The position numbers and the translations under genes were made by a program. Source: Caryophanales bacterium (GTDB lineage Bacteria > Bacillota > Bacilli > Paenibacillales > CANHCR01). From it: a stretch of 48,435 bases of DNA. Location: positions 1 to 48,435 of the forward strand of contig CANHCR010000017.1 of the NCBI GenBank assembly GCA_947459205.1, written 5' to 3'. Shown here one piece after another: positions 12,013 through 41,300 of the stretch. Under the pieces are notes generated by a model. It searched no databases. It had not been told where the DNA came from and saw only the letters and a list, made by a program, of their open reading frames with translations. Numbering within the stretch: position 1 is the stretch's first letter; every line of letters begins with the position of its first letter.

Positions 12013-12100
12013 TGCGATTCCTCCAATGTTTCTAAGTTGATATGTATACACTCTACATTTTTAAGCGCTATAATACAACACTTGACCCATTTCGAATTCG

Positions 12101-12114
12101 CGAAAACGTTTACA
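12101..12114. promoter_or_regulatory. cre site (CcpA) upstream of the first amylase
   Basis: CGAAAACGTTTACA matches the catabolite-responsive element TGWAANCGNTNWCA at 13 of 14 positions. It lies about 90 bases before the amylase start, so glucose repression by CcpA is expected. Confidence 0.6.
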
Positions 12115-12146
12115 TCGAAGATGATTGTCATGAAATTGTCACAAAT

Positions 12147-12192
12147 AAAAACCGGGGTCCGGCTCCAACGATTTGGAGCGCGAACACCCGGT
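12147..12192 (-). terminator. Rho-independent terminator of the CBM scaffold gene
   Basis: A long stem, ACCGGGTGTTCGCGCTCC paired with GGAGCCGGACCCCGGT (with mismatches), is followed by TTTTTATTTG on the minus strand. Confidence 0.88.
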
Positions 12193-12212
12193 ATTGAAAT
12201 TCTAAAATATTC

Positions 12213-15800: not shown

Positions 15801-15954
15801 AACCTCACTTCTCCTTATGTAAAATTCGTGTAAAAACCACACGTATGTAATTCTACAAATAATCCAAAAATCCTGCAACCAAAATTTTCTAATTGTATAT
15901 ACATTGATGGCGGCAGGCATGGCATTATGCTTGCCTTCCTCATCGAGTTAGGCA

Positions 15955-15988
15955 TAAAAAAGCCGAGTCAATGTTTGGACTCGGCTCA
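15955..15988 (-). terminator. Rho-independent terminator of the stalk lipoprotein gene
   Basis: The perfect stem AGCCGAGTC / GACTCGGCT is followed on the minus strand by six T. Confidence 0.9.
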
Positions 15989-16017
15989 TTTTCACCAGTA
16001 ATCGGTCGTACACTTTA

Positions 16018-17565
16018 CTATTTTCGTTGGATGACTACTTCTTTCGTTTGTGCTTTCCATTTGACTTGAGCATCAATGAGTTTGAATGTTGCACGTGCAG
16101 GCACGTACGTGACTCCATTTTTGTTGACTACTTTCATCCCCAAAAACTTCTTGTTACCGTCCAAATACACCGATTTGCTATCATGCGGCATCACAATTTT
16201 CTTGCCCTCATCAAACAACTCTACCTGTTTCGTTTGCGAGTTCCATGCTACTTTAGCGTCAAAATTCGCAGCTGCACTTCGTAAAGGTACCATCGATGTG
16301 CCGTTCACAATGTACGGTTGTGGATCGGAAGGAATACGAATGTCATACGGAACCATGACAAACGCAGCCGTTTGGCGCGTCATGTGCAAATCATTGCGTA
16401 AAATATCATATGCAAGGGAAGCCGCGTTCATCGAACGCATCATTTTACGAGGTCTCATGTCTTCATCGACAATGATCGCATTCGGTCCTACTGCAATTTG
16501 ATTTGCTACTACTGGACCATTCAAATTCCATTTTTCTTCTTCGATGATGACTTTGATTGATTTCAATTCCTCATTAACTGCAATATTGGCTTTCGGTGCA
16601 AGGAACAATTCATATTTTGCTTTACGCGTATTGAACTGCTCATCCACATATAAATCAACTTTCAAGGATGAATTAGGGTCAAGTTCCGTTGCATTCAGGG
16701 CAAACTCGGGATCTTCTTTTAAATTTTTATCAAGTTCATCATGAGCGCTCGTTACCATTTCCAAAATAGAGTCCACAATTTGTGTTTTTTCTGCTTTCAT
16801 GTCGGCTAACATTTGCTCAGCTGTTGTTGTGTCTTCTTCCATTTGCACCGTATAAATCGGTGCAATTAAATCGAATAATTGATCAATCAAAGCGTTAAGC
16901 CCGTCTTTATCCGCAATAATATTTGCCAAAAATTGCAGTACGTAATCAGCCGCTTCGCTCGCTTTCATCTCTGCTGTCACATGTTTTAGATTCAGCAATT
17001 CGGAGTTAATCTCAATGGTTGCATCCTGAACATCAATCGTATTCGGATTTGGCAATTGTTTCACTACGTAGTTCATTAGTGCATCGACAATCGAATCATA
17101 GGATTGCATCAGTTTTTTTGAAGCTTCTTCGTTCAAACCTGAGGTATCTTTATTGATTCCGCCCATGCCTAGCGTGCGGAATACGATTGGTTCACCGGCA
17201 CCGTCCAATTTGACGACCAATTGCTCATCATTCATCGAAACTTGAAATGGAACCGAGCCTTTACTGACTTCGATTGTTCCTTCCATCGACATTTTATTTG
17301 TATCTTCGACGCGCACTGAACGCATTACAATTTTTGCATTCTTGAACAATTGCATCATCGCTTGCTCTTCTGCATGATCTTCATCACGAGTAGTTTGTGG
17401 AACATAATCTAGTGCAAGCGAAATACTTGTCGTCCCCTCGTATGACTTTAAATCCGGATTATATAGCACCTTCGACATGTCTACACCCAAAATTGACTGA
17501 CAACCTGCAACGAACGCCATCACAAAAGCCAAACTGAACATCCACCATGCACGTTTTTTAATCAC
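16018..17565 (-). CDS. Lipoprotein with copper-amine-oxidase-like stalk domain
   Basis: A 515-aa predicted lipoprotein. Starting from GTG 17565, five bases after AAGGTGG, the protein opens MIKKRAWWMFSLAFVMAFVAGC with a good lipobox (VAGC). The central 300 residues are charged, helix-rich and unrecognised. The C-terminal 110 residues contain two half-repeats of the stalk fold (PYIVNGTSMVPLRSAAANF, KVAWNSQTKQV; GVTYVPARATFKLIDAQVKW), a domain common on Paenibacillus surface proteins. The gene starts 53 bases after the lectin gene stop with no terminator between, so the two are probably cotranscribed. No enzyme activity is implied by the stalk domain; a role in the surface amylolytic complex is inferred from context. 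Confidence 0.8.
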   Translation of the reverse strand: MIKKRAWWMFSLAFVMAFVAGCQSILGVDMSKVLYNPDLKSYEGTTSISLALDYVPQTTRDEDHAEEQAMMQLFKNAKIVMRSVRVEDTNKMSMEGTIEVSKGSVPFQVSMNDEQLVVKLDGAGEPIVFRTLGMGGINKDTSGLNEEASKKLMQSYDSIVDALMNYVVKQLPNPNTIDVQDATIEINSELLNLKHVTAEMKASEAADYVLQFLANIIADKDGLNALIDQLFDLIAPIYTVQMEEDTTTAEQMLADMKAEKTQIVDSILEMVTSAHDELDKNLKEDPEFALNATELDPNSSLKVDLYVDEQFNTRKAKYELFLAPKANIAVNEELKSIKVIIEEEKWNLNGPVVANQIAVGPNAIIVDEDMRPRKMMRSMNAASLAYDILRNDLHMTRQTAAFVMVPYDIRIPSDPQPYIVNGTSMVPLRSAAANFDAKVAWNSQTKQVELFDEGKKIVMPHDSKSVYLDGNKKFLGMKVVNKNGVTYVPARATFKLIDAQVKWKAQTKEVVIQRK

Positions 17566-17618
17566 AAAGACCACCTTCTCATCAGAAATAATTTTTGTAA
17601 ATTCATTATACACCAAAT

Positions 17619-19841
17619 TTACTCAACTACACGCATGATTTCTGAATAATTCCGATGAGTAGGAGGCACATCATGCCATACCGTTTTTCCAGAAATGGTG
17701 TTTGCGCTCAATTTTCGTTTGAACAACGCATTCATGATTTTTACAGTTTCCAATCTAGAAACTTTCAATGTATCGCGTTTCGTTTGAGCAGTCGCCGTAT
17801 TCGCTAACCACGAGACTTCACGAACGGCTTGCTTAAATCCATCAGTTTGGATGTGCTTCTTTTGTAGCAAACGTTGAATCACCATTCTCATTTCAAGACG
17901 AGTTAACGGACGGTTCGGTGCAAAGTTGCCTTTAAGGTCAGCACTCATGATTCGATGTGTGTGAACCGTTTCAATCTCGCGGTACATCCAATTTTGCATA
18001 CTCACGTCGACAAAGAGTGATTTCGCTCCGCTGCGCGTAGATCTTTCGTTTGTTTGTTGCATTTCAGTAAGTCGAACAATTGCCGCAGCCAATTCTCCGC
18101 GTGTAATCGCTTGTTGCGGTTTAAACAGCCCATCGCGGTAACCGTACATGTAAGCAATTCTCGGTGCGGCCTCAACGTTCAGCAATACTTCTGCTGGCGC
18201 TGACTCATAATCTCCTTCTTTGACAATAAAAGTGAAACGATCTTTACCAACAAAACCCTTATCGGAAATGTATTGGTAAGAGCCGTTTGGATTTAAAGTC
18301 AATGTACCGCTTGAGACTGATTCGACGATTGAAAATTTCAGAGATGATCGCAAACGATTAGTTGGCGCATAGAGAAGCATGTTTTCGTAACGAACAGCAG
18401 AAAGTACTTGTTCGAAACGGCTTAATGCATGAATAGGTTTGGGTGAGATGCTAATTTGAACAAGGACAGGAGAGCTGTTGCCAATCCCGTCGTTTGCGAT
18501 TACATAGAAACGGTCGTTCCCTTTCGATTCTTCATTTGCAATGTAACGAAATGTTCCAGTGAACTCATTCAACACGACGTTACCTTTGAGTGGCGCGGAA
18601 TGAACGGCAAATGACAATTCGTCATTATTTTTATCAAGACCCTTCATGATTCCATCTACCCCATCACCCGCAACCACTTTTACCTGTTGCGGCTCCAAAA
18701 CAGGCAATTCATTCGCGTTCAAGAGATTCAATGACTGCACCGACTCGTCTGATAGTAGTTTGCCGTCACTAACCTTCACTTTAAATGAATCCGCACCCTC
18801 ATAGCGATGATGTGCTGTGTAAACAAATGATCCTGTTTCATTATTCAGTTGTAGCGTACCATGTTTAGGTAACTCAGTAACGAAAAATTTGAGCGTATCA
18901 TTTTCAATATCATTTGCCACAATCTTGCCATTAACAAATCGCATTCCAACCTCATTCGTCCAATTCCCCGCCTCGACAGTAGGTTTTGTATTAATCGACA
19001 ACGAATTAGCAGAACCGCCTAACTGTATTTTCATAACATCATCCAATGGAATTCCGTGTTCATAATATCGGTTGTCAAAAAACAGTTTTCCGACCTTATG
19101 ACTTCCGTAAAATTTACCCGTAGCCGAAGTAAATCCAATATGAATCTCTGGTTGTTTCATGATTGTGTCAAGTCGGAATGAAGGCAGTTGTAATTGCGGG
19201 CTAGCCGGTCTTTTGCTATCACCAGCAACACGCACCTCCATGATTGAACGAGCGCCGTCGTACTCAATCCAAACGTGACGGAGTGCACCATCGTCCAGCA
19301 CGATTCCCTGTTGGTCTAGTTCTCCGATTCCCGTGATCGCCAGCGGTTTGCTGAGATCGCCATTCGCATTGATCGCGATATGGTTGCCATCTTTATCACC
19401 ATAAAGTGTTAGGTTATGAAAGGTATCAAATTCAACCGCCACACTGTTTCGCACCCCATGATAGCCGATACCGCCACCATTCTTGCCGGGCTCGTACGCT
19501 TGATCGGAAATGATAAACATCAAGCCATCGGCACCTCGCAACCCAGTATCACTAATCTTCATCGTGAAATAAGCGCTGAACGAGCGCGTTTTCGAGATGT
19601 CTAACGCTTCGCGATAAAAAGCGCTACCCGCAACATAAGGGACGGCTGGCGTCAATCTTAAGTAACCAGCCTCACTACCAGAATCCTGAACAGAAGCCGT
19701 CCCCTTCATAATCAAATCACTCGACTTAAATCCGTCCAACTTCACCTGAATTTCTGATGGTGGCAGTGCAGCGGCTTGGTTGACTGAAATGAATGCAAAA
19801 AAGACTGCCACTGCAAAAAATATGATGTTCAATTTTTGCAT
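17619..19841 (-). CDS. S-layer-anchored L-type (legume) lectin-like protein
   Basis: A 740-aa surface protein. After the signal peptide (cut near NQAAA), residues about 30-260 look like a legume/L-type lectin domain: FTMKISDTGLRGADGLMFII, GGGIGYHGVRNSVAVEFDTF, DGNHIAIN, HVWIEYDG, IHIGFTSATG, the usual order of lectin strands. Three cadherin/Big_9-like Ig domains follow, each ending like GTLQLNNETGSFVYT, GNVVLNEFTGTFRYI or GTLTLNPNGSYQYI. The C-terminus carries SLH domains (GYRDGLFKPQQAITRGELAAA; FVDVSMQNWMYREIE...GNFAPNRPLTRLEM) for binding cell-wall polysaccharide. ATG 19841 is 8 bases after AAGGAG; GTG 19850 overlaps the ribosome site. Sugar specificity is unknown; neighbours suggest alpha-glucans. 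Confidence 0.88.
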   Translation of the reverse strand: MQKLNIIFFAVAVFFAFISVNQAAALPPSEIQVKLDGFKSSDLIMKGTASVQDSGSEAGYLRLTPAVPYVAGSAFYREALDISKTRSFSAYFTMKISDTGLRGADGLMFIISDQAYEPGKNGGGIGYHGVRNSVAVEFDTFHNLTLYGDKDGNHIAINANGDLSKPLAITGIGELDQQGIVLDDGALRHVWIEYDGARSIMEVRVAGDSKRPASPQLQLPSFRLDTIMKQPEIHIGFTSATGKFYGSHKVGKLFFDNRYYEHGIPLDDVMKIQLGGSANSLSINTKPTVEAGNWTNEVGMRFVNGKIVANDIENDTLKFFVTELPKHGTLQLNNETGSFVYTAHHRYEGADSFKVKVSDGKLLSDESVQSLNLLNANELPVLEPQQVKVVAGDGVDGIMKGLDKNNDELSFAVHSAPLKGNVVLNEFTGTFRYIANEESKGNDRFYVIANDGIGNSSPVLVQISISPKPIHALSRFEQVLSAVRYENMLLYAPTNRLRSSLKFSIVESVSSGTLTLNPNGSYQYISDKGFVGKDRFTFIVKEGDYESAPAEVLLNVEAAPRIAYMYGYRDGLFKPQQAITRGELAAAIVRLTEMQQTNERSTRSGAKSLFVDVSMQNWMYREIETVHTHRIMSADLKGNFAPNRPLTRLEMRMVIQRLLQKKHIQTDGFKQAVREVSWLANTATAQTKRDTLKVSRLETVKIMNALFKRKLSANTISGKTVWHDVPPTHRNYSEIMRVVE

Positions 19842-19981
19842 CGCAGACACTCCTTCATCTTGATCTCATTGATAAGTGTATGTAGTCTCCACGATAAATT
19901 GAATAGCAAAAGATACACATTAACAGGATTGTCACAATTATTTTCACAAGATGTTCACAAATACTATACAAAAGTAACTAT

Positions 19982-22936
19982 TTAGTTTGGACGATACTGA
20001 ACTGCTGCTCCAAGAGAATCTGCAATGAAGCGAAGTGGCACGAATGTCGTTCCACGGATAATGACTGGCGGTGCATCTAAATTCAACGTTTTTCCATTCA
20101 ATCGAGCCGCACGACTGCCAACCTGCATCGACAAATCAATTCCCTCGCTCTTCGCTGACAGCGTCTTCGTGCGCAAATTCCAATTGACATTGACACCGAA
20201 CGATTCAAACAACACCTTAAACGGCACGACGATTCGTCCATTGACTCGGCGCGGTTGCATCGGCGTGTTTAGACGCTTACCGTTAAAAAATATTTGGTTT
20301 CCAACGACCAGCACGACATCTTTCGAAGAGACTGCATCGTTACTCTGATTGTTCGACGATGTGTTATTGGATGAAGAATTTACATTCGAAGTACTTGGAG
20401 CGCCGCTAACGATTTTACCCGCATTGCCATTCGCGTTCGGCAGGTAAGTGTATACACCCGCTGCAAAACTGTAATTCTTTCCGGAGTTGCTGTCCCAAAG
20501 ACCCGAACCGTTATTAAAACAAGCTGTAAGTCCATCGGCATTGCCAATCGGAACGGTTATTTTGTGATAGCCGTCGACCTCAGATGCGGCCATCGGTACA
20601 CCTGGCACATCCGTCCAGCTGCCGTCATTCGGGCGATAATGAATGTGCGGGATCGCGAACCCTTTTTTATAATAAATGGTCACAGATTTCACATTAGTGT
20701 TTGTTCCGTTCTCTTGATTCGCAGGCGGTTTCGGCTCCGGCTCCGGCTCCGGCTCAGGCGTTGGCACTACCGGTTGTGACGAAGTCGTCGGTTTGCCCGA
20801 TTTAATCGTACCCGGGCCACCATTCGCAGCTGGCACAAACGTCCAAACACCTGGCTTAAACGCATAATTCTGCTTGTTGTTCGAATCCCACTTAGAACCT
20901 CCATCGTTGAAACATGCCTCTAACTGCGACTGCTCACCGATATTGGTCGTAAGTTTGTAATATCCTGGCACCTCAGATCCACTCATCGCACGTCCAGGCG
21001 TAGCCGTCCATTCGCCGTTCGCTTGACGAAAATGAATATGCGGTTTCGCAAACCCTTTTTTATAATAAATCGTAACCGTGTTGGCGCTTTCCGTATTTGT
21101 TTTGCCGCTGATTGTTGCAGCTCCAGTCGAGCGATTGCCGGCCCCATCAACCGCCACAATCCGATAGGCATACGTCGTTTCTGGACTTAATTCCTTGTCA
21201 GTAAATGTGGTGCCCTCCACCGTATCAATCAGCACATTGTTGCGATACACTTCATAGCCGGAAATACCGAGATTGTCTGTAGCCGCTGTCCAAGTGAGGC
21301 TGATCGTACTGTCTGTTTTGCCGCTAACTGCAAGGTTTTGCGGGCTACTTGGTGCCACGCTATCCTGTACGGCCGCCTCTTTTTGCACATAAATCGAGAG
21401 CGATCGACTGTTCACCGGGAACGTCGCCCAACCATCAGCACCGATGCGAATCAAATCGGAGCGATTGCCTGTCATATCGTGCCAGCGCTCACCAGCATGT
21501 TGTTTGCCGACAAACATCTTTTTCGAACCTTGCTGTCCGTCGGAAATGACCGTCGCTAACCCAGAAATCGGCCTGCCTACTTCGCCTTCGCGCGTCCAAC
21601 CGACGACATCTTCATCGTTCAAATAATCGTGTTGCACCCCGTACGCATAGTCCTTGCGCGCTTTCAGAATCGGGTCGATTTTCGAGCGCAGTGCTGGCAA
21701 GTTATTGTTCGGAATACCGTAGTAATCGCCGTAAAAGACGCACGGCACACCCTCTTTTCGAGTGAGGATGAACGCATACGATTGCGGCTTGAACCACTCT
21801 TTGACCCATGATTGTAGCGCCTGACCTGGCTGCGTGTCATGATTGTCGACAAAGGTAATCGAATGATTCGGATGCAAATCGGTCAATGAGCCGTCGAGCA
21901 ACTGTCTCATGTCATAGTTGCCGTTCGCGTTTGAGGCTTTTTCAAAACGATGATGCAAATCGACGTCCAACACGGACATGGTTTTGTTGACCTTTGTCAA
22001 ATAGTTGGCCAGTAAGTCGGTGTTGCCACTCCAATATTCGCCAAACGTAAATAGCGGTTTGCCGGTCGCTTTGCGCACATTGGTCAGCCAATTTTTCATA
22101 AAATCGAACTTGATATGTTTCACCGCATCCAAGCGGAATCCGTCGAGATCGAGTTCTTTGACGAGCCATGTGCCCCAGTTCGTCATTTCGTTGACGACGT
22201 CAGGATTGTCGAAATCCAAATCGGCAAACATCAAGTAGTCGTAGTTGCCGTTTTCTTTGTCGACTTCGACGTCCCACGATTTGCCTTGAAATTTAAATAA
22301 CTTTTGTTGATTGCCTTGTCCGTCATAATCGACGCCGTTGAAATGGCTGGCATTCCATTGAAAAGATGAATGGTTGGAGCCGCGCCCTGGGAACCAGAAT
22401 CGTGTGTATGAGGTAATTTGGTACGCGCCGGACCGTTCGACGTTGCGGTTCTTTTTGTCGACCTCAATCGCATTCACTTGATCAGTGCCGTCCGCACCTG
22501 CTTTGTGATTCATAACGATGTCTGCGAATACCTGAATTTGATTGGATTTCAGTGTTGAAATCGCTTCTTTCAGTTCCCATTTTGTGCCGTATTTCGTGCG
22601 TACGCCACCTTTTTGATCGAATTCGCCGAGATCGTACCAATCGTAGACGCCGTAGCCCACGTCATTGATCGTTTGCCCTTTGTATGCGGGCGGGAGCCAG
22701 ATGGCGTTCACACCGACGTTGCGGAGCGCACCGGCCTCTGACTGTAAGCGTCGCCAATGATTGCCGTCGGCAGGCAAATACCACTCAAAATATTGCATAA
22801 CCGTCATGTTATCTTTGCTTGCTGCGACCGCCACCATCGGCTTGCTGACAGGGGTGCTAGGAAGTATGGGTAGGCATACGGCGAGCAAAGACATAATAAG
22901 GACTACCGAAATGATACGCTGAATGAAGACTGACAT
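19982..22936 (-). CDS. Secreted alpha-amylase, GH13_5-like, with FN3, two CBM25 and stalk domain
   Basis: A 984-aa endo-alpha-amylase of the Bacillus liquefying type. After the signal peptide comes the GH13 barrel (about 42-525): MQYFEWYLP start, region I DIVMNH, region II GFRLDAVKH (nucleophile Asp), region III FGEYW (acid/base Glu), region IV FVDNHD. Then one FN3 (about 535-620), two CBM25-like domains, each starting TIYYKKGFA, separated by a PEPEPEPEPKPP linker, and a stalk domain closely similar to the one on the starch-binding scaffold (TTFVPLRFIADSLGAAVQY versus STFVPLRFVGESLGVTVQY). ATG 22936 follows GAGGAGGG. A cre site and an extended -10 lie just upstream. First gene of the cluster; no clear terminator follows, so readthrough into the lectin gene 140 bases on is possible. 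Confidence 0.95.
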   Translation of the reverse strand: MSVFIQRIISVVLIMSLLAVCLPILPSTPVSKPMVAVAASKDNMTVMQYFEWYLPADGNHWRRLQSEAGALRNVGVNAIWLPPAYKGQTINDVGYGVYDWYDLGEFDQKGGVRTKYGTKWELKEAISTLKSNQIQVFADIVMNHKAGADGTDQVNAIEVDKKNRNVERSGAYQITSYTRFWFPGRGSNHSSFQWNASHFNGVDYDGQGNQQKLFKFQGKSWDVEVDKENGNYDYLMFADLDFDNPDVVNEMTNWGTWLVKELDLDGFRLDAVKHIKFDFMKNWLTNVRKATGKPLFTFGEYWSGNTDLLANYLTKVNKTMSVLDVDLHHRFEKASNANGNYDMRQLLDGSLTDLHPNHSITFVDNHDTQPGQALQSWVKEWFKPQSYAFILTRKEGVPCVFYGDYYGIPNNNLPALRSKIDPILKARKDYAYGVQHDYLNDEDVVGWTREGEVGRPISGLATVISDGQQGSKKMFVGKQHAGERWHDMTGNRSDLIRIGADGWATFPVNSRSLSIYVQKEAAVQDSVAPSSPQNLAVSGKTDSTISLTWTAATDNLGISGYEVYRNNVLIDTVEGTTFTDKELSPETTYAYRIVAVDGAGNRSTGAATISGKTNTESANTVTIYYKKGFAKPHIHFRQANGEWTATPGRAMSGSEVPGYYKLTTNIGEQSQLEACFNDGGSKWDSNNKQNYAFKPGVWTFVPAANGGPGTIKSGKPTTSSQPVVPTPEPEPEPEPKPPANQENGTNTNVKSVTIYYKKGFAIPHIHYRPNDGSWTDVPGVPMAASEVDGYHKITVPIGNADGLTACFNNGSGLWDSNSGKNYSFAAGVYTYLPNANGNAGKIVSGAPSTSNVNSSSNNTSSNNQSNDAVSSKDVVLVVGNQIFFNGKRLNTPMQPRRVNGRIVVPFKVLFESFGVNVNWNLRTKTLSAKSEGIDLSMQVGSRAARLNGKTLNLDAPPVIIRGTTFVPLRFIADSLGAAVQYRPN

Positions 22937-22958
22937 GAAAAACCCTCCTCTTCCAATT

Positions 22959-22972
22959 TGCAAACGCTTTCA
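22959..22972. promoter_or_regulatory. cre site (CcpA) at the second amylase
   Basis: On the minus strand TGAAAGCGTTTGCA is an excellent match to the cre consensus. It sits between the likely -10 box and the ribosome binding site, where bound CcpA would block transcription. Confidence 0.78.
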
Positions 22973-25485: not shown

Positions 25486-26730
25486 TTATTCTGACGACCA
25501 TTTGCCGTACGTCATGCGGCGCCACAACCACTCCATCGGTCCAAAGGAATAGCGCGTTAACCACCAACGGCTAAACAAAACTTGAGCTACGAAGATTACG
25601 AAGGCAATCAACGCCAAGCCAGCGACGCCGATTTTGCCATACAAGCCAAGTCCGACATTGTAAAACAGCAAGCAGCAAATGACCGATTGTAGCAAATAAT
25701 TCGTCAACGCCATCCGCCCCGCCCACTGTAGCGATGATAGCAACGATTTCCAAGTTTCCATACGCGTCAAAGCGAGCAGCGCCGTCGCATAAAAACCAGC
25801 GAGTCCCAAGTCCCCAAAGAATCCGAATAGCGGTTGTACGGCATCGTACATGCTCGTTGCATCGAGCTTCATATTCGCGGAACTGTATTCCTTCAAAATT
25901 GTGAACACAACGCCTATACCGAAACTCCAAATCATCACTTTACGCAGCGTTGCGACTTCGGTCTGCATTCGCTGCAGTAGCCCGCTCCGAATCACATAGG
26001 CACCAATCAAGAAAATCGGCAAAATCATAAACGGCACAACGACCAAATTGGACAGCGTTTGCCCCCAGTCTGTCGCACGCTGTGCGAGAATGTCGGACAA
26101 TCCGCCCGCTCCATAATTGGCGATCGATTGCTCATACAGCTTCTGGTATTCGAGGTTCATCTCTGATTTTAGTGAACCTTCGCCTCCACCAGTTAACGAG
26201 TCAGCGACAAACATCAGCCCAGTCCCGACAATCATTAACAATGCAAAGGCAGCAAACAGACTACCCGCCCAAATGAGCAACGTGCGCGGTTTGCAATGAT
26301 AGAATAGCAGTAACAGCATGCCGCAAAGCGCATACATCACGAGAATGTCGCCCCACCAGAGAAACAAAGCATGCAAAATACCAATCACGAGCAAGATAAG
26401 CACGCGCCGGAAAAACAACTTACGCGGCGACTTCCCCTTTTTCTCCGCATTCATCATAAAAATGATGCAACCGATGCCGAACAGCAATGAAAATAGCGTA
26501 TAAAACTTTCCTTGCACCAGCCACGATGCGACATGAAAAACCACATCGTCCAGAGCGTTCCCAGGAATGTCTCGGTGCAACATCTCCGCATAGATCAACG
26601 GCCAGGCAAAACCAACGATATTGATAAGCAAAATGCCTAGCAAAGCAAAACCGCGCAACATGTCTAGCCAAACGATCCGATCCTTCGCGGCTACAGGGAC
26701 CGCAGCCTCATTCATTTCTACTGGATTCAT
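25486..26730 (-). CDS. DUF418 domain membrane protein (YeiB-like)
   Basis: A 414-aa polytopic membrane protein. The N-terminal pattern RIVWLDMLRGFALLGILLINIV and FSLLFGIGCIIFM, followed by several further helices and a C-terminal DUF418 domain with FGPMEWLWRRMTYGKW, is characteristic of DUF418/YeiB proteins, related to acyltransferase-like membrane proteins with unknown substrate. Start ATG 26730 is 8 bases after AGAGG; the ATG at 26763 overlaps the stop of the AlkD-like gene (ATGA) but lacks a close ribosome site. It follows the AlkD-like gene with no terminator, so it may be the last gene of that operon. Confidence 0.88.
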   Translation of the reverse strand: MNPVEMNEAAVPVAAKDRIVWLDMLRGFALLGILLINIVGFAWPLIYAEMLHRDIPGNALDDVVFHVASWLVQGKFYTLFSLLFGIGCIIFMMNAEKKGKSPRKLFFRRVLILLVIGILHALFLWWGDILVMYALCGMLLLLFYHCKPRTLLIWAGSLFAAFALLMIVGTGLMFVADSLTGGGEGSLKSEMNLEYQKLYEQSIANYGAGGLSDILAQRATDWGQTLSNLVVVPFMILPIFLIGAYVIRSGLLQRMQTEVATLRKVMIWSFGIGVVFTILKEYSSANMKLDATSMYDAVQPLFGFFGDLGLAGFYATALLALTRMETWKSLLSSLQWAGRMALTNYLLQSVICCLLFYNVGLGLYGKIGVAGLALIAFVIFVAQVLFSRWWLTRYSFGPMEWLWRRMTYGKWSSE

Positions 26731-26759
26731 GACTTGCACCTCTTTATTTAAGATAAGTG

Positions 26760-27440
26760 TCATACGAGATGTTTCAGAGCCTCTCTCTTGCTTAACGGCT
26801 TTAACTCACAGGAGTGCACGAATTGCAACACGGATTGCGGTTGAACGCGAGCGTATTGGCGTAGCGCCCAGCCAATCGCTTTTTGCACAAAAAACTCATT
26901 GCTAGCCGCCAAATTCTCTATGTATCGATACAACAATTGCTCATTGGTGCGCGACTTTGCAGACAGTTGAAAAAGAATCGACGTACGTTGCAACCAGATG
27001 TTATCGCTGCGATTCCACTTTTCGAGCACATTCGAGATTTCGTTCGTGACTTCGGGCGGTTGCGATACATACAGGAAGCCAATGACATTCGGCGCAATCG
27101 TATCGACCGTGTCCCACCAAGATTTCGTCGTGATCAGTTGTTCGATCCAAGCGATATCGTCAAACGTCAACTGTTTGCGCCAAGTATCGAGCAAATCCAG
27201 TGCAACGCGCTGATATTCACGTTCCGGCAATCCCCAAAAATACTGGACTCGTTCCCGTAATTGTGATCGACTTGGCTTATCGATTGTTTTCACCCAGGCC
27301 TTAGTAAGTTGACGTTGCAACGGTACAGGGACGCCGATAAACTCAAACTGACCGCGCATATATTGCTTGCACCAACTTGCATAGACTGGGTCACTGTGTT
27401 TCTCCATCTCGCTCATTAGCCGTTTGCATTCGAGATTCAT
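26760..27440 (-). CDS. DNA alkylation repair protein, AlkD-like
   Basis: A 226-aa all-helical HEAT-like-repeat protein of the AlkD glycosylase family, which removes bulky or positively charged alkylated bases. Family pattern: DPVYASWCKQYMRGQFEFIGVP, ALDLLDTW, TTKSWWDTVDTIAPNVIG, WLQRTSILFQL, FVQKAIGWALRQYAR. The tryptophan-aspartate pair in KSWWDTVD corresponds to the base-binding and catalytic region. The gene lies 18 bases downstream of the HNH endonuclease gene, so it belongs to the NERD-HNH-AlkD operon. The weak GGGGAT upstream suggests translation may be coupled. Confidence 0.9.
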   Translation of the reverse strand: MNLECKRLMSEMEKHSDPVYASWCKQYMRGQFEFIGVPVPLQRQLTKAWVKTIDKPSRSQLRERVQYFWGLPEREYQRVALDLLDTWRKQLTFDDIAWIEQLITTKSWWDTVDTIAPNVIGFLYVSQPPEVTNEISNVLEKWNRSDNIWLQRTSILFQLSAKSRTNEQLLYRYIENLAASNEFFVQKAIGWALRQYARVQPQSVLQFVHSCELKPLSKREALKHLV

Positions 27441-27458
27441 GTTCGTTTGATCCCCATT

Positions 27459-28340
27459 TCAATACGAGTAGCGCTTATTGCCGCGAAACACTTCCTTAAA
27501 GTGCCATTGCAAATAACGATCTTTCGGCTGATAGTCAGGCGCAATCGGCATTCGAATCGATCGACCGTGATATTTCATCAACCACTCCTCGAACCCGCCG
27601 TTCCCATTCGCCTGATCGGACACGAGAAAGCGTCGCGTGTCATGATCAATCGTGAACACCCCGCGATCAAACAACTTGTGATGCATCGAACACAAAGCGA
27701 GACCATTGTTTTCGTCATCCGGACCGCCTGCCTGATGCCACTGAATATGTGCCGCCTCCACGCCAACCAAGATGTGACCGAGACGCACTTGGAAATCACA
27801 GACAGCACATTTGTATTCATACGCCCGCAAAATGTGTTCTCTGAATTTCGGATCCCTAGCACGCGATTTGACGAGACGCACATTCGGATTCAGTCCGACA
27901 TCATTGAGAATGTCCTCATGCATCGTCTCGGGAAAATGCTCATTTAAAATCAGCAGCGCCAGTTCGGTGATCAACGCAGGATTTTGCTCCAACAGCGCTT
28001 GCACATCTGCACGAAAGCGACCTGCAAATCCTTCCTGCAAAAGATAGCGATCCTTAATCTCGCGGTTGTCAATCGGCAAATTCAGTTCCCAAATACCACC
28101 GTCATTGCGCAGCCTAACAAACGGTTCTTCGGGATGGTACGTCTTGCGTGGTGGACCATACTCACGCAGTAAATAAGCAAGACGCTCTCGCACTTCATTG
28201 TAACTGAATTCACTCACTTTGTCTGTCTGAACGCGACCAAGCGCATACAAAAGTAGCAGCGGTTTGTGCGGCGCTCGCTGCTGTCCTTTTTTCCAAATAC
28301 TTAGATTCATGATTTGTCGCTTTAATTGGTCAGCGTTCAA
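27459..28340 (-). CDS. HNH endonuclease of the phosphorothioate-DNA-binding (ScoMcrA-like) restriction family
   Basis: A 293-aa type IV-like restriction nuclease. The N-terminal half (RAPHKPLLLLYALGR, REYGPPRKTYHPEEPFVRL) matches the sulfur-binding domain of phosphorothioate-dependent enzymes such as ScoMcrA. The C-terminal half is an HNH domain: CAVCDF, VEAAHIQWHQAGGPDDENNG, LCSMHHKLFDRG, with the two Cys and the AAH, N and HHK positions present. Such enzymes cut DNA bearing Dnd-type sulfur modification. The start is TTG 28340, 5 bases after the NERD gene stop; ATG 28310 is the in-frame alternative but would remove the usual N-terminal helix. No dnd genes are nearby, as expected for a restriction-only system. 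Confidence 0.85.
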   Translation of the reverse strand: MNADQLKRQIMNLSIWKKGQQRAPHKPLLLLYALGRVQTDKVSEFSYNEVRERLAYLLREYGPPRKTYHPEEPFVRLRNDGGIWELNLPIDNREIKDRYLLQEGFAGRFRADVQALLEQNPALITELALLILNEHFPETMHEDILNDVGLNPNVRLVKSRARDPKFREHILRAYEYKCAVCDFQVRLGHILVGVEAAHIQWHQAGGPDDENNGLALCSMHHKLFDRGVFTIDHDTRRFLVSDQANGNGGFEEWLMKYHGRSIRMPIAPDYQPKDRYLQWHFKEVFRGNKRYSY

Positions 28341-28345
28341 TGGAA

Positions 28346-29038
28346 TCAGCTCTCATTCGTTTGCGTGACGATACGCTTTCTGATTTCTGGATCAACAATA
28401 TTAGCACGCCTAATTGTGCTCTCAATCACCTCGAGACTAGACATAGACAATGGCGACACACCGCCTTCCATCTTCATTCTAAAACATTTTCGGGTGACAA
28501 ACTCGCTAAATTCGGTATCATAGACGACCAATTCGTTCGACTGGATATTCCGAAGTTCAGCGTCAACTTGAAATGTGCAACGCCGATTAAACGAAACAAT
28601 CGATACAAACGGTACTAATTTGTGATCAGATAGAAGTCGCTCGAGCGCTTTAATATGTCCGTAGTTTTGGCGAATGGGACTGTACATTTTGAACCGTTTG
28701 TTGACATACCAGTTCGCTTGTTCCTTTTTACCACTTATGTAACCGCTATAGTTCTTCGTTTCAACAACAAAAATAGCATACGGTGTTAGTACAATGTGAT
28801 CGATTTGCGAATATTGAGTCCGCGATTTCGGATTGGCAATCATTATATCGCTCATATGTATGTATTCCTGTGGCAACTGGGACAATTGTATTTCAATTTT
28901 GTACTCGCCTAATGCTCCGATTCGTGCAGCTTTAATCTTTTGTTTCGGTTTTTCATTGGGCTTCGTATCACTGAAAAACATGCGTAATTTATCAAGCAAC
29001 CATTTCAACTTCTTCCAACTCCTAGGCCAAATGATCAC
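28346..29038 (-). CDS. NERD domain protein (nuclease-related)
   Basis: A 230-aa protein. A basic N-terminus is followed by the NERD domain (about 45-170): GALGEYKIEIQLSQLP, then SQIDHIVLTPYAIFVVETKNYSG, WYVNK and PIRQNYGHIKAL. The D of QIDH and the E-x-K of ETKNY fit a PD-(D/E)XK-like active site, so a nuclease function is plausible. GTG 29038 is the start of the open frame but lacks a good ribosome site; TTG 29008, about 10 bases after AGGAG, is possible. It is first of the NERD-HNH-AlkD genes, 5 bases from the HNH gene. Confidence 0.82.
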   Translation of the reverse strand: MIIWPRSWKKLKWLLDKLRMFFSDTKPNEKPKQKIKAARIGALGEYKIEIQLSQLPQEYIHMSDIMIANPKSRTQYSQIDHIVLTPYAIFVVETKNYSGYISGKKEQANWYVNKRFKMYSPIRQNYGHIKALERLLSDHKLVPFVSIVSFNRRCTFQVDAELRNIQSNELVVYDTEFSEFVTRKCFRMKMEGGVSPLSMSSLEVIESTIRRANIVDPEIRKRIVTQTNES

Positions 29039-29555: not shown

Positions 29556-30304
29556 ATGAAATTCGACATGCACACCCATCACCAACGTTGCGGTCACGCA
29601 AGCGGCACGATTGAAGACTATATCAGAGAGGTTCTCCGACAAGGAGCGCCCATAACACCTATACGGCATCATCATGCGACAAAATTAAGGTGTTGCAGAG
29701 CGTTGAGGCTGACTACTATCCGCAACTCGAACAGCGATACCGAAGCAAACTCGCCCAGTTCCCGTTTGACTATGTCATTGGGTCCGTGCACATCGTCGTT
29801 CCCGGGGCAACTGTCTTTCGCACACAAAATTGGATTGGTCGCTCGGACGAAGAAATCATCATGCTCAAAGAACGCTACTACCGTTATATCCAAGGTTCAA
29901 TCCTCAGTGGCATGTATGACATCATCGGACACATGGACGCACTGAAAGTTTCGTATCAAAAGTGTGTAGATACACTTCCGTCACCGAGTTTCGCTACGTT
30001 CGCCGACATTCCTACAACCGAGGTTGATAACACACTGAAATTACTTGCGGAGTCCGAACAGGTCATCGAAGTAAACAGCGCGTTTAGTTACAATTTTTCC
30101 AATGGCACGGCGAACTGGTATCCAAGTCATGAGTTGCTGGAGAGAGCCTGCCACTACGGCGTGCGCGTCACGTTCGGCTCTGATGCACATGATTCATATT
30201 ATGTAGCGTGGCAACGCGAAGAAGTGAAAGCGGCGCTGCGAGACATCGGCTATAAAGAATGGTACTTCTTCCGCGGGCGCAAACCAGTAGCCTGTCCGTT
30301 TTGA
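29556..30304 (+). pseudogene. HisK-like histidinol-phosphatase (PHP), internally deleted
   Basis: The first 31 codons (MKFDMHTHHQRCGHASGTIE...LRQGA) are a normal N-terminus of a PHP-domain histidinol-phosphatase, with the metal-binding HTH and HRCGH-like region. The remainder (DKIKVLQSVEADYYP...YVIGSVH...MYDIIGHMD...VTFGSDAHDS...RKPVACPF) is also conserved but in another frame. Between them about 40 expected residues, including the DHS metal ligand segment, are missing. The reading frame from the start therefore runs into unrelated residues (to 29945), and the downstream part is open only from GTG 29690. Loss of part of the metal site and the frame make it a pseudogene. AAAGGAG precedes the ATG. 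Confidence 0.87.
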
Positions 30305-35323: not shown

Positions 35324-38300
35324 CTACTGTAAGGTTGTCACACTCAACGCAGTCGTTGGTACGGACAAGTTTTTCTCTGCATCGACTGCACGAATCGTGA
35401 TACTGCTGGTCGTATTAGCTGTCATATTTTTAAATGTATAGTTGTTCACAATCCCTGCCACGGTAGCAACATACGTACCGTTTCGATATATGTTGTAATG
35501 TGTAACTGCTACGTTGTCCGATGCCGGCGACCAAGTAATTCGGAAACCTGTAGATGTGATGAGACTGCTGTTTACTGTCGTCGGTGCCGTTGGTGCGATC
35601 GGATCTACCGTGTACGTTGTTGCAGCGTTCAAGACGATCGACTGATCAGAACGATTTCCGGCATTGTCAATCGCTTGGACACGGATTTGATGCGACAAGT
35701 TAAACGGTAATCCGCTAAACGTATAGTTAGTACCCAGTACAGTTTGAACATACACACCATTACGATAAACGTTGTATTTGGCAACAACTTGATTGTCCGT
35801 GGATGCGTTCCAACTCACACGGAATCCGGTCTTCGTTACATTACTTAAAGTAAGACCTGTTGGAATCGTCGGCGCAATCCCATCGAGCGTCGTTGCACTG
35901 ATTGCATCTGTCATACCCGAACGATTTTTCGCGGCATCAACTGCCTGAAGACGAATCGAATACGCTGTGCTACTGGCTAAACCAAGGAACTCAGTCTCTG
36001 CACGCGGTACTGTTTTTACATACACACCGTTCAAGAAAACATTGTATCCAGTAACACCGACATTGTCTGTCGATGGCGTCCATGTCACGAAAATTTTATC
36101 TTTTGTCACCTGTGTCGCAGTGACGTTTGTCGGAACTGTTGGCGGTGTCATGTCAATCGTTGTCACATTACGCAAAGCCTTCGCCGAGCGATTATTTGAA
36201 GTATCAACTGCCATCACTTCAATATTATAGCTCTGCAATTCAGTCAGCCCCGCAAAGCGGTACGTTGTGGTTGTCACAGTATCGATCAGTACTCCGTCGC
36301 GATAAATATTGTATCCTTTTACAGCCACGTTATCTGTAGATGCTGTCCAGTTCAATCGGAAGCCTGTCGCAGACAACAATGCAACTGTTAAATTAGAAGG
36401 TGTTGTCGGCGGGATGATATCAGGCGTAGATACACTAATCGGTGCGCTCAATGCCGAGACATTGTTTTTCTTGTCAAAAGCCAACACTTGAACTGAGAAA
36501 TTCGCACCGGAAGTGAGGCCGAACAATTCGACTTCGAGCACATTGGCAGGCAATGTGCGCGTAACGACGCCGTTCACAAATACTCGATAGCCGGTCACCG
36601 CGACGTTGTCTGTCGACGCATTCCAACTGACTTTAAACCCGGTTGGACGGGCATTGCTGACCGCTACACCAGAAGGCACAGTCGGTGCAAGTCGATCACC
36701 GCCGAGCACCGCCGGAATGAGCGTATCAACTGGTTGCAATGCAATCGTCGTTTCTACCGTTTGATTACTGTTCAAATACATCGTGTACGTGGCGCCACCG
36801 GCAATATCCAGAATATTGCTCAAAGCGCTAACACCGGCTACTTGATTGTTCGTGTTTCGGCCCCAGGCAACGACCGTTCCATTCGATTTCAGGGCAATCG
36901 AATGTTGCCCGCCCGCAGCGATGGCACTGACGCCGTTCAAAGTACTCGGCACGTTCGTTTGTCCGGACTCGTTCGCGCCCCAGGCAACGACCGTTCCGTC
37001 CGCTTTAAGCGCCAAGGAATGGTTGCCGTTGGCGGCAATCGCCACGACGCCACTCAAGCCTTCTGGAATCGTCACTTGACCGTTTGTATTCAAGCCCCAG
37101 CCAACGACCGTTCCGTCCGCTTTTAATGCTAAAGAGTGGAATGTGCCAGCGGCAATCGCCACGACATTTTCTAAATCGCTTGGTACAGTAGCGACGGCGG
37201 CGTTCGTCGTTTCATTGCCGTTAAAACCCCAAGCAATGACCGTGCTGTCATAGCGGAGAGCCAATGAATGGTATCCGCCAGCAGCAATCGCGACGATATC
37301 TTTGAGACCGTTAGGAACATTCGTTTGCCCGTCCCCGTTGCGACCCCATGCGACGACTGTGCCGTTCGTTTTCAACGCAAGATTATGGAAGCGACCTGCC
37401 TTCACAGCGACAACATCGCTCAGATTTTGCGGTTTGCCCAACTGATTCATCGTGTTGGAGCCCCACTCTTCAACCGTTCCATTCCCCATGGTTGCAACAC
37501 CATGCTGCCAACCAGACGAAATGAGACGCACGTCATCAGCGCTCGGACGATACATATAGGTGTTATTACTGAGCGAACCTTCAACCCCATCGACAACCGC
37601 ACTCACTTGCGCATAATACAGCTGATCCCATTTCCACGCGGAGGTCGTGAACGTGTACGTTCGCGAGGTCAATCCGGAAGCCACCAACTGTCCGTTCAAA
37701 TACACATTATACGTCGTCGCACCCTCAAACTCATCCCAACCGAGATCAATCGTGTTGCCCGAAATTTGCGCCGTCGGGATGACGACACGTGCCCATTTTG
37801 CATACAACGTCAGGTCACTAGAGACTGTAGTCCAGTTCAAGGCGCCTGCGCGATATTCGACGAACGGTGTGGTCAACGCAACATCCGTAAACCAACCTTT
37901 GAACACATAGTTCGCTGCACGCCAAGGCCACGCATATTCAGATGAATAACCACGATAGAGCGTAACTCTACCTTGTGTGTCCGCTTGGATTGGAGAAAGC
38001 GCTGTTCCACCATTGGACTCAAACGAGACCGTTCGCCCAGAAGTCATTTTATACAAAAGATTTTGACTATCCGGCATTAACCAGATGCTGTCCCCCGCGA
38101 AGATGAGGCGGTTAAACGGTTTCGTACCGACAAGATCATTATTAATTACGGTTGTCTTATTGTAAGCCGATAATTGACCGTTCGAAATCCGATAACGCAA
38201 GAGCGCACTCTGCATATTAAAGTTTGATTGTCCGTAAGACACCCAAATATCGCGACCATCATATGTCGCATCGATAATCCCGTAAGATGTCGGTCCATGC

Positions 38301-41300
38301 TCGATATGAATGGCAGATGCCCAGTTGCTCACTTCTGATACGGTGCCATCGGCAACGGTAATCTTCACCAGCGGCTTAGCCGTGGAATTCGGTACCATCC
38401 AAATGTGCGAGCCGTCGAACAAGGCCGACACGTAAAACGTCAAAGAATTTAAAGCGGTCCGTTCGGAATAGGTCGTCATGCTGTGCGTAACCGTATTGAA
38501 CTTGACAATCGAACCGTTATTATGGGCCGCTGGAATAAGCCAAATGTTAAGTCCATCATAAACGCCGTGTGAGTAGTTTGCAGCATATTCCGCAGCTTGC
38601 ACACTCGCCGGCCAACTCGTATATTTGTTGATTGCATTGGTGTTCGGATCAATCCGCAAAAATCCGTTCGCATGACTGTAGAAACGGTCCGATTTCGGGA
38701 ACAGCCAAACATACTGACCGTCATAAATGCCGCCGGCAAAATATAAATAGCAACTCGACAGGCAACCCGGAATCGTTGTAATCGTCACGATTTCATGCGT
38801 GGTAGCATTCACTTTATAGATTTTGTTGGTACCGTCAGGAATAAGCCAGATACTCGTACCGTCATAAACCGCACCGGAAAAATCGTCAATCCATGTTTCA
38901 TTGATTTCAAGGTCGATGGTGGTCATTGTACCGTTCGCTTTGTTCACTTTCAGCAGTTGATCAATTCGCCCTTGCGGAACGAACCAGACATGCGTGCCGG
39001 TATCCACCGCATCGACAAAACTACTTTGCCATATACTCATCCCTGTGGATGTCAAAATATTGTAAGACGCCAACGTCGGTTCAGTAATTTGACTGTACGA
39101 AGTCGTAAAGCGGCTATACGAATTACCGTTTTGCAAAATAATTCCGTTGGTCGATAACAACCACTTCGCGTATAGCGTAAACCCGGCACTGACCGGCGTA
39201 GAAAAGTCGTAAGCGTTGTTTAATTCCGCATCGCTATACCATCCGACAAACTGGTACCCCGCACGAGTCGGAGCGGTCGGTTCGCTGACTGTTGCACCCG
39301 CTGCCAGTAATTGAGTCGTGACTGCCGACCCACCACGTGTATCAAACGTAACGCTAGCCGTCCATTTTGCATAGAGAGTGAGCGGCCCGTTGACTGCTGT
39401 AGAGAATGAATGTGCGCTCGTCAGTCCACTATCGGAGAACCAACCGCCAAATGTAAATCCACTGCGTGTCGGGTTCGCAGGTTGCGTCACCGTTTGGCCG
39501 AACGCGCGCGCTTGCGAGGCGACAGCACTGCCGCCGTTCGAGTTGAACGCCACTGTAAATGTCGGTGTCAATTTAATGACGCGATCCGCCTCATATGGAA
39601 TCACCCATCCGGCGCGACCATCGTAGAGAAGATCGGTAAATGCATCTCCGAACGGATTCGAATTGAAACCACTCGGCCAACTGTTGAACGTACTCATCGA
39701 GCCATCGCTAACATCGACACGGACCAAACAACTGTCGCGGGCGGCAACCCACAAATACGTTCCGTCAAAAACACTTCCTGTCGTACCCAAATATGCGCCG
39801 ATGCTGCAGTTGTTCGGCCAATTTGTAAAAGCGGTCATCATGCCGTTGGTCGGATTCAATTTGACGAGCGCATTGTGATCGCTAAGCGAACCTGCTCCAG
39901 GTACAAGCCATATATTTTGCCCGTCATAAGCAGATGAAGCAAATTTCATCGCAGAATAGTCGCTCGGCCATTGGTTGTAACCGGTAAACGAGCCTGTCTG
40001 TGTATTCATTTTATACACCCGATTCAATGGATGAGACAACCCTGCCGGCGTCAGCCAGAGATGAATACCGTCATATAAGACGCTTGAGAACATCGGCAAA
40101 TTAGTAAAACTTGCAATCTCACTCGGTAAGGCAAAAGACTTCACGGAGTTATCCGCCGGATCGAAGCGCAAAATCGAATTTTCATAATGCGGTGCCAACC
40201 ACACATAGCGACCGTCAAACACGCCGCCGGCAAAACGATTGCTCGATTCGAATGAAGTATAACTGACCGAGCTCATCGAACCGGTGGAGGCATCCACTTT
40301 TACGATTTGGTTCGCGTTGGACGGAATCAACCAAACATGTGTGCCGTCAAATACACCGCCGGCAAAATTGTTGCCGAATCCGGACCAAGTAAAGCCCGCC
40401 GGCCAGCTACTGTATGCCGTCATCACACCTGTCGATTTGTTCATTTTCACCAACGATTTCGAACTCTTGTTCGGTATAAGCCACAAGTTCGTGCCATCGT
40501 CAACTGCACCAGTGAAATCATCAGTACCTTTCGTGAACCCGCTCGGCCAACTGTTAAACCCGCTCGCCGTCAGATTGACAAGTGGCGCCGGCGTCACCAC
40601 AGTGCCGGTGAAACTCGTTCCATTTTGCAAATAAAATTCGTTCCATTTCGCATAAATCGCCACATCATCCGTAACTGGCGTGCTGAAGTCATACGCTCCT
40701 TGGGAGGTATACCATCCTTGGAATGTGTACCCTGCTTTCGTCGGTTGCGTCGGTTGCGTTGCCGTCTGCCCGTAGGTTAACATTTGCGTCGCCACCGAAC
40801 CTGCGCCATTCGTATGGAACATCACATTGAACTTGCGCTCGCTGATTTTAACCAGCAAATTGTTGTCCTCCGGGATAAGCCACAAATTGGCGCCATCATA
40901 CGTTGCCCCGGCGAATCCACTCGAAATGGTACCGCCATGTATGTTACTAAACGCACTCATCGCTCCGGTCGTCGGATGAATACGAATCATCGCATAGTTG
41001 TTCACGTTCGGAATGAGCCAAACGTGCGCACCGTCATAGAAGGCTCCTTTAAATTTGTCAAAGGTCGATTTCGTGTAACCGGTCGGCCAACTGCTGTATC
41101 CGGTCATTTCGCCCGACTGTACATCGACTTTGACGACGATTGTTGTATGATCTGCCGGCGCCAACCAGAGGTGTGTACCGTCAAACGTACCGCCGGCAAA
41201 TCCGGTAAGCGTCGTTTTCGTAAAACCTGCCGGCCAAGTGCCGTGTGACGTCATCGAACCGTCTGCCGGGTTGAATTTCACCAATGAACTTCCGGAATCC

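What the first reader, a model, noticed from the sequence alone, without database searches (positions are those of the whole stretch)
26760..29038. NERD - phosphorothioate-type HNH - AlkD operon as a possible defence unit
The three genes are on one strand with gaps of 5 and 18 bases. A restriction enzyme for sulfur-modified DNA beside a NERD protein and an alkyl-base glycosylase is an uncommon set. AlkD enzymes can act on phosphate-adjacent or bulky lesions and the related AlkX has backbone interest, so DNA-modification-targeted defence is possible but unproven.
Basis: partly seen in the sequence, partly recalled or inferred. Interest (0 to 1): 0.58.

Follow-up and report, generated by a model that had tools for sequence, protein, structure and literature searches.

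The report
Sulfur-DNA restriction enzyme with NERD nuclease
A bacterium carries a known type of enzyme that should cut sulfur-marked foreign DNA, with a second predicted nuclease gene beside it that in related bacteria often sits next to many different anti-phage systems; the DNA-repair gene next to them looks like an unrelated bystander.

Summary
The three genes are real, on one strand, with the stated gaps. The trio is not a unit. AlkD lies in none of the 83 other loci I examined around relatives of the HNH gene. No NERD or HNH gene lies in the 29 loci around its own best relatives. The directon also holds a glyoxalase-like gene upstream and a DUF418 gene overlapping AlkD.

The HNH protein is an SBD-HNH phosphorothioate-dependent restriction enzyme by sequence (NF045808, 364 bits against a cut-off of 180). 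Its predicted fold agrees (Z 19.1 to the ScoMcrA sulfur-binding domain). The sulfur pocket is kept except for its lid, Glu72, which all seven Bacillota rows share.

The NERD gene is the more interesting part. In its order, close relatives sit directly upstream of several unrelated restriction systems (27 of 60 regions; 39 of 60 have one nearby, against 0 of 18 arbitrary regions). Elsewhere in its class one precedes Gabija. Many relatives stand alone, so the link is frequent, not obligate.

Best reading: a two-gene module, a PT-DNA restriction enzyme plus an accessory PD-(D/E)XK nuclease, with AlkD incidental. Cleavage of PT-DNA and any action of NERD are inferred.

The parts
28346..29038 (-). 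NERD protein, 230 aa; PD-(D/E)XK-type nuclease domain at residues 41-150; N-terminal basic/hydrophobic helix
   Evidence: PF08378 93.7 bits; D80, E93, K95 invariant in 14 close relatives and in 14 diverse NERD rows; AF2 pLDDT 88.1; best fold matches are McrC nuclease domain and Cdn1 (Z 8.1 each) and Can2 nucleases. GTG start as listed; a TTG some codons downstream has a better-placed AGGAG, so the start is unsure.
27459..28340 (-). SBD-HNH restriction endonuclease, 293 aa: sulfur-binding domain (about residues 1-155), linker, HNH/zinc domain (about 161-290)
   Evidence: NF045808 363.8 bits, cut-off 180; AF2 pLDDT 92.6; Z 19.1 to SBD of ScoMcrA (5zmo), Z 15.3 to TagI HNH part; pocket H25 K26 E72 P73 R76; C178 C181 H198 N212 C217 H220 H221
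26760..27440 (-). AlkD alkylpurine DNA glycosylase (neighbour; judged not part of the module)
   Evidence: PF08713 202 bits; 193 bits to 3jxz, with W109, D113, R148 and W187 of that chain aligned to identical residues (their catalytic role is recalled)
25486..26763 (-). DUF418 membrane protein (YeiB-like), overlaps AlkD by 4 bp; bystander
   Evidence: PF04235 152.9 bits
29053..29520 (-). VOC/glyoxalase-like protein, ends 14 bp upstream of NERD; bystander
   Evidence: PF00903 30.2 bits
25452..25482 (-). Terminator-like hairpin after DUF418
   Evidence: 13-pair stem followed by T-rich tail

Best explanation
The functional unit is the pair NERD-HNH. The HNH protein is a phosphorothioate-dependent (type IV / IIM) restriction endonuclease. 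Its N-terminal sulfur-binding domain grips an Rp-phosphorothioate in incoming DNA (plasmids or phages from dnd+ donors), and its HNH domain cuts a few bases away. The host shows no DndC, so its own DNA should be unmarked. NERD, made from the same message, is an accessory PD-(D/E)XK nuclease that does not read the mark itself. It most likely degrades or nicks the DNA opened by its partner, possibly near the membrane through its N-terminal helix. This would explain why close relatives are coupled to restriction systems with quite different sensors. AlkD, DUF418 and VOC are co-directional housekeeping or repair genes. Shown here: family, fold, pocket residues, gene order, recurrence of NERD beside defence genes. 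Inferred: PT-DNA cleavage by this protein, nuclease activity and role of NERD, co-transcription, membrane placement.
For: HNH: NF045808 at twice the cut-off. Foldseek ranks 1-9 are all chains of the SBD proteins SprMcrA and ScoMcrA; Z 19.1, 2.3 A over 150 residues to 5zmo. H25/K26/P73 match ScoMcrA H116/R117 (Lys in most homologues)/P165. Published SBD-HNH motif and CxxC/CxxH zinc ligands are present. DndC absent in own genome, 0 of 1, while the model rang in 5 of 14 controls below its cut-off. NERD: 27 of 60 regions in the order have a restriction-family gene directly downstream on the same strand (ORF edges at most 122 bp apart), 39 of 60 have one in the region; 0 of 18 arbitrary regions and 0 of 29 AlkD loci do. 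Partners include the AAA_5 + DUF2357/PDDEXK_7 pair, Mrr_cat, McrBC, another HNH_2 protein, SLFN-g3 helicase and, outside the order, GajA-GajB. The partner label changes at least 27 times on the NERD tree of 75 rows, where 10 is the least possible. NERD beside an SBD-HNH gene is seen again in L039, L060 and L079.
Against: From the HNH side NERD is a rare partner: a NERD-like hit lies in 8 of 83 regions (4 strong, 4 weak; two of the 83 are duplicates), with the direct same-strand neighbour in 3 (the profile was built partly from these sequences). Genome-level co-occurrence is not enriched: NERD in 7 of 22 genomes with HNH over cut-off against 154 of 392 overall (read). 21 of 60 NERD regions had none of the nine families; outside the order only 2 of 11 had one (4 of 11 with PADLOC hits), and the g15 clade 0 of 3. 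The nine profiles were built from the NERD loci themselves, so the 39 of 60 is partly circular; many of the M26 cases are one syntenic lineage. Lid residue Glu72 is acidic where the SBDs ScoMcrA and SprMcrA have Tyr; the E. coli relative has Met. No experiment.
Confidence: 0.6

Rival explanations
1. The HNH enzyme works alone as a PT-dependent restriction enzyme; NERD is only a neighbour, a gene that marks or seeds spots where defence genes gather, not a working partner.
For: Characterised SBD-HNH enzymes (EcoWI, Bsp305I) cut without a partner (PMC7461809, abstract and passages). NERD is absent from most SBD-HNH loci. In one genus the genes upstream of NERD are fixed while the downstream cargo varies, as at an insertion hotspot. 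Eight of 11 close NERDs outside the order lie in loci with no family of the profile set and no Gabija.
Against: NERD keeps company with restriction genes in many unrelated loci with different upstream genes, often first in the row and a few bases from the partner; NERD itself is a conserved nuclease with invariant D-E-K.
Confidence: 0.27
2. NERD is a back-up suicide nuclease that attacks cell DNA if the restriction enzyme is blocked by the invader.
For: Proposed for stand-alone NERD genes at the edges of Dnd loci (PMC10853773, passages) and for NERD in PglW (PMC12839542, passages).
Against: No test here; in the window NERD is the first gene of the pair, on the same strand and 5 bp away, not at a boundary on the other strand.
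Confidence: 0.2
3. One reading: NERD, HNH and AlkD act together, AlkD removing bases or processing lesions in PT-modified or otherwise modified DNA.
For: Tight spacing (5 and 18 bp) in this genome. DNA glycosylases can be anti-phage enzymes (Brig1, Brig3; PMC13160076, passages), though those are uracil-glycosylase relatives.
Against: AlkD absent from 83 of 83 other HNH loci and 60 of 60 NERD loci; HNH and NERD absent from 29 of 29 AlkD loci. AlkD overlaps DUF418, not HNH. AlkD is a standard AlkD and the only one in this genome.
Confidence: 0.04
4. The Bacillota branch with a Glu lid no longer reads phosphorothioate but another mark or structure.
For: Glu72 in all 7 Bacillota rows of the 35-row alignment and in 1 other row (L078); Tyr164 in ScoMcrA lines the pocket and its isoleucine mutant lost 89% of binding (PMC6224610, passages).
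Against: Lid residue is only conserved in 7 of 23 homologues and is tied to sequence context; the Met mutant binds better. Other pocket residues are kept.
Confidence: 0.1

Closest known systems
SBD-HNH phosphorothioate-dependent restriction endonucleases (EcoWI, Bsp305I, SprMcrA; NF045808)
   Same: Same two domains, same profile, predicted SBD fold, pocket His-Lys-Pro, CxxC/CxxH zinc ligands, HNH residues, no DndC in host
   Different: Glu in place of the Tyr lid of ScoMcrA and SprMcrA; directly preceded by a NERD gene
E. coli 'phosphorothioated DNA-binding restriction endonuclease' WP_044066756.1 (L254)
   Same: 42.5% identical over 98% of the protein; lies near Dsr1 and a type I S subunit
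   Different: No NERD gene annotated beside it in the 12.9 kb shown; lid Met
NERD domains in PglW (BREX type 2), DndF, MADS MAD6, Mokosh MkoA
   Same: NERD nuclease domain tied to a defence system
   Different: PglW and DndF carry NERD fused to kinase and other domains; here a stand-alone 230-aa protein whose scores to those models are far below their cut-offs (MAD6 52 of 460 bits, PglW 18 of 990)
Bacillus cereus AlkD (3jxz)
   Same: Whole-length match, 193 bits, key residues kept
   Different: Nothing that suggests a defence role

Membership tests
SBD-HNH PT-dependent restriction endonuclease | Score above the curated NF045808 cut-off | tested here: met
   363.8 bits against 180
SBD-HNH PT-dependent restriction endonuclease | Sulfur-binding-domain fold | tested here: met
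   Predicted model, pLDDT 92.6; Z 19.1 to 5zmo, 18.0 to 7cc9
SBD-HNH PT-dependent restriction endonuclease | Pocket residues His, Lys/Arg, Pro | tested here: met
   H25, K26, P73, invariant in A1; counterparts H116, R117, P165 from PMC6224610 passages
SBD-HNH PT-dependent restriction endonuclease | Tyr lid (ScoMcrA Y164); not a strict criterion, conserved in 7 of 23 homologues per that paper | tested here: not met
   Glu72; alignment to SprMcrA chain 7cc9
SBD-HNH PT-dependent restriction endonuclease | HNH domain with CxxC and CxxH zinc ligands | tested here: met
   PF13391; C178xxC181, C217xxH220, H198, N212
SBD-HNH PT-dependent restriction endonuclease | PT-dependent cleavage | not testable with these tools
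   Needs purified protein or transformation assay
SBD-HNH PT-dependent restriction endonuclease | Host without a PT-modification cluster | tested here: inconclusive
   DndC 0 of 1 in own genome; DndE 0 of 1 but that search rang in no control; Ssp genes not searched
NERD nuclease (PF08378) | Profile above cut-off and D-ExK catalytic residues | tested here: met
   93.7 bits against 22.1; D80, E93, K95 invariant
NERD nuclease (PF08378) | PD-(D/E)XK fold | tested here: inconclusive
   Best Z 8.1 to McrC nuclease domain (3.7 A, 129 residues), just at the level where chance arrangements occur; no Foldseek match under E 0.001
AlkD | Whole-length match with active-site residues | tested here: met
   193 bits to 3jxz, W109 D113 R148 W187 aligned
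Conserved three-gene defence unit NERD-HNH-AlkD | Same three genes together in other genomes | tested here: not met
   0 of 83 HNH loci and 0 of 60 NERD loci hold AlkD
NERD-bearing systems PglW/BREX, MADS | Model over its curated cut-off | tested here: not met
   MAD6 52.4 of 460, PglW 17.8 of 990 bits

The most novel reading that the evidence does not exclude
The short NERD protein is a shared, plug-in nuclease of Bacilli: one stand-alone PD-(D/E)XK enzyme, perhaps held at the membrane by its N-terminal helix, that serves many unrelated defence systems (SBD-HNH, another HNH_2 protein, Mrr, McrBC, the AAA_5/DUF2357-PDDEXK pair, SLFN-g3 helicase, Gabija) by destroying DNA that these have recognised or cut. 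In this window it has been paired with a PT-DNA restriction enzyme of a branch with an acidic lid and so perhaps a new sequence context.
Probability: 0.25. Interest if true: 0.65.

Novelty: new variant of a known kind. Interest (0 to 1): 0.42.

Why it matters
If NERD is an interchangeable helper, one small protein would raise the power of several defence systems at once, and tests of Mrr-, McrBC- or Gabija-type systems that left it out would have missed a part. It also gives stand-alone NERD proteins a testable job. The Glu-lid branch offers PT-dependent enzymes of possibly new sequence preference, useful for mapping sulfur marks.

Tried and rejected
AlkD as a defence member: rejected for lack of linkage in 83 HNH, 60 NERD and 29 AlkD loci. 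AlkD with phosphorothioate in print: 0 papers; AlkD with anti-phage and defense: 1 paper, in which AlkD occurs only in the reference list.

NERD within a known NERD system (BREX, MADS, Mokosh): scores far below the curated cut-offs; PADLOC gives only partial matches of 12-29 bits.

Conservation among close relatives: not testable; the family of this genome holds only itself. Phage carriage of the HNH gene: 3 records of 50,697, one covering 80% or more. Plasmids: 99 of 72,556 records. NERD in viral contigs: 10 loci, all distant, 31-43% identity. NERD by sequence in solved structures: no credible match.

Print searches on NERD with restriction, phosphorothioate, Gabija, McrBC or Mrr. None of the titles or abstracts listed, nor the passages I opened, describes the NERD partner swapping; subscription papers are not in that library. 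A search for AlkD active-site residue names in PMC8282808 found no passage.

Full report
WHAT IS THERE. The three ORFs are at the stated places on the minus strand, NERD 28346-29038, HNH 27459-28340 and AlkD 26760-27440, with gaps of 5 and 18 bp. They are part of a longer close-packed row: a VOC/glyoxalase gene ends 14 bp before NERD and a DUF418 gene overlaps AlkD by 4 bp. A terminator-like hairpin follows DUF418 and a promoter-like match precedes VOC; matches of this kind are only slightly above the shuffled mean in this region. G+C is 0.407 for NERD and 0.432 for VOC, 0.489 for HNH, 0.477 for AlkD and 0.476 for the window.

THE HNH PROTEIN. It scores 363.8 bits to NF045808, 'phosphorothioated DNA-binding restriction endonuclease', cut-off 180. 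A 35-row alignment of relatives fetched from named genomes gave a confident model (mean pLDDT 92.6). Foldseek ranks chains of the sulfur-binding-domain proteins SprMcrA and ScoMcrA at places 1-9. The second aligner gives Z 19.1 (2.3 A, 150 residues) to the ScoMcrA SBD with PT-DNA and Z 15.3 to TagI over the HNH part. By comparison with ScoMcrA and SprMcrA (PMC6224610 and PMC7470945, passages read; alignment) the pocket is H25, K26, E72, P73, R76 against ScoMcrA H116, R117, Y164, P165, A168. His, Lys and Pro are invariant in the alignment. The lid position is Glu in all seven Bacillota rows and in L078, Tyr in most others, with Phe, Leu and Asp in a few; the E. coli relative has Met. The 2018 paper states that Tyr164 is conserved in only 7 of 23 homologues and contacts bases, and that the Met mutant binds better. 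So a changed lid points to a changed sequence preference rather than loss of sulfur binding; this is inference. Motifs named for SBD-HNH enzymes (KP-LL ... PF-L-W; CxxC and CxxH) are present. The genome has no DndC match; the DndE search is uninformative because it rang in no control. Ssp genes were not searched.

ALKD. It matches Bacillus cereus AlkD over its length (193 bits to 3jxz) with W109, D113, R148 and W187 of that chain aligned to identical residues; that these are active-site residues is recalled. It is the only PF08713 protein in the genome. Of 83 other HNH-relative regions (63, 20; two pairs are the same gene) none holds AlkD or DUF418. Of 29 AlkD-relative loci with 1.5-kb flanks none holds HNH, NERD or DUF418. 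Among 392 genomes of the order, AlkD occurs in 115 and in 5 of the 22 that have HNH over cut-off (read from the lists). There is no sign of a link.

NERD. The protein has the NERD profile (93.7 bits). D80, E93 and K95 are invariant both in 14 close relatives and in 14 diverse NERD rows. The model (pLDDT 88.1) matches best the McrC nuclease domain and Cdn1 (Z 8.1 each) and Can2 nucleases, scores that by the tool's own note can be chance. Close relatives (over 200 bits) gave 65 hits in the 392 order genomes, own included. I fetched regions around 59 of the other 64 plus one partial hit. In 39 of these 60 regions at least one of nine restriction-type families is found; in 27 it is the next gene downstream on the same strand with ORF edges at most 122 bp apart. 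The families, named by Pfam and PADLOC, are an AAA_5 protein with a DUF2357/PDDEXK_7 partner (PADLOC PDC-M26), Mrr_cat (PDC-S02), McrB/McrC, an HNH_2 protein with another N-terminal part, SLFN-g3 helicase and a DEAD/PLD helicase (mREase_IV). Regions counted as empty include some with other defence genes: HsdM in L210, Hhe/PDC-S37 in L198, PD-Lambda-1 in L232. The same profiles found nothing in 18 arbitrary 10.6-kb regions of the same genomes (one search gave 18 of the 20 asked) or in the 29 AlkD loci.

LIMITS OF THE NERD RESULT. The nine profiles were made from the NERD regions and the HNH set, so 39 of 60 is partly circular although the controls are not. Many M26 cases are one lineage with the same upstream genes. 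On a tree of 75 NERD proteins the partner label needs at least 27 changes (10 is the least possible; shuffled mean 38.5), with starred branches forcing at least 7 for M26, 3 each for Mrr, McrBC and DEAD/PLD, and 2 for SBD-HNH. For that tree I labelled some loci by a partner that lies upstream or on the other strand (L180, L190, L193, L194, L202) and left L188 and L215 as none although a DUF2357 piece lies upstream; the window row has a long branch. Outside the order, 11 close relatives were examined. By the nine profiles 2 of 11 have a partner (L299, L300); PADLOC adds GajA-GajB directly downstream in L298 and a DrmD-like helicase further off in L297, 4 of 11 in all. Three of three relatives from another genus of the order sit beside ordinary genes without any of these families. 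From the HNH side, a NERD-like hit is in 8 of 83 regions, four of them weak; direct same-strand neighbours are L039 (a close NERD, HNH reading frame broken), L060 and L079. Genome-level co-occurrence is not raised (7 of 22 against 154 of 392; read).

MECHANISM. Shown: families, folds, residues, order, recurrence. Inferred: the HNH enzyme cuts PT-marked incoming DNA, as EcoWI and Bsp305I do (PMC7461809, abstract, introduction and passages); NERD processes that DNA or acts as a back-up. For stand-alone NERD genes beside Dnd clusters, a suicide back-up role was proposed (PMC10853773, passages). I put the helper role somewhat higher because NERD in the window is first, close and on the same strand, not at a boundary. 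Several viral-contig NERD proteins start with an apparent membrane helix (read by eye) while this subfamily starts with a short basic/hydrophobic helix; a place at the membrane is a guess.

VERDICT. HNH: known kind, with a lid variant. AlkD: bystander. NERD: a frequent companion of defence genes whose function is open. In the papers searched I saw no description of this partner swapping.

Noticed in passing
L099 (G073:C1:2559128-2573958): An SBD-HNH gene lies in a row with a second HNH_2 gene, a MazG-like gene, a SLFN-g3 helicase and, further up, a NERD-HRDC protein; MazG-like and SLFN-g3 genes recur beside NERD elsewhere.
   Followed up: partly
L195, L229, L231 and others of one genus: Two small genes (81-82 aa HTH-like by eye, and a 165-aa protein with no Pfam match) lie upstream of NERD while the downstream defence genes vary, as in an island hotspot.
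   Followed up: partly
window 29556-30304: A PHP-type phosphatase gene (by eye) appears split between two frames (ORFs 29556-29945 and 29690-30304), which suggests a frameshift or sequencing error.
   Followed up: no
window 10099-22963 and 35324-44887: Several large, apparently secreted proteins with fibronectin-like and amylase-like parts (by eye), and one 3187-aa repeat protein, fill much of the window.
   Followed up: no
L064 6156-8828: Three SBD-HNH-like genes lie in tandem in one gammaproteobacterial contig.
   Followed up: no
L039 8001-8871: The SBD-HNH gene beside NERD in Paenibacillus sp. 2.1 is in two overlapping frames and so probably broken, and the SLFN-g3 helicase next to it looks shortened.
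   Followed up: no
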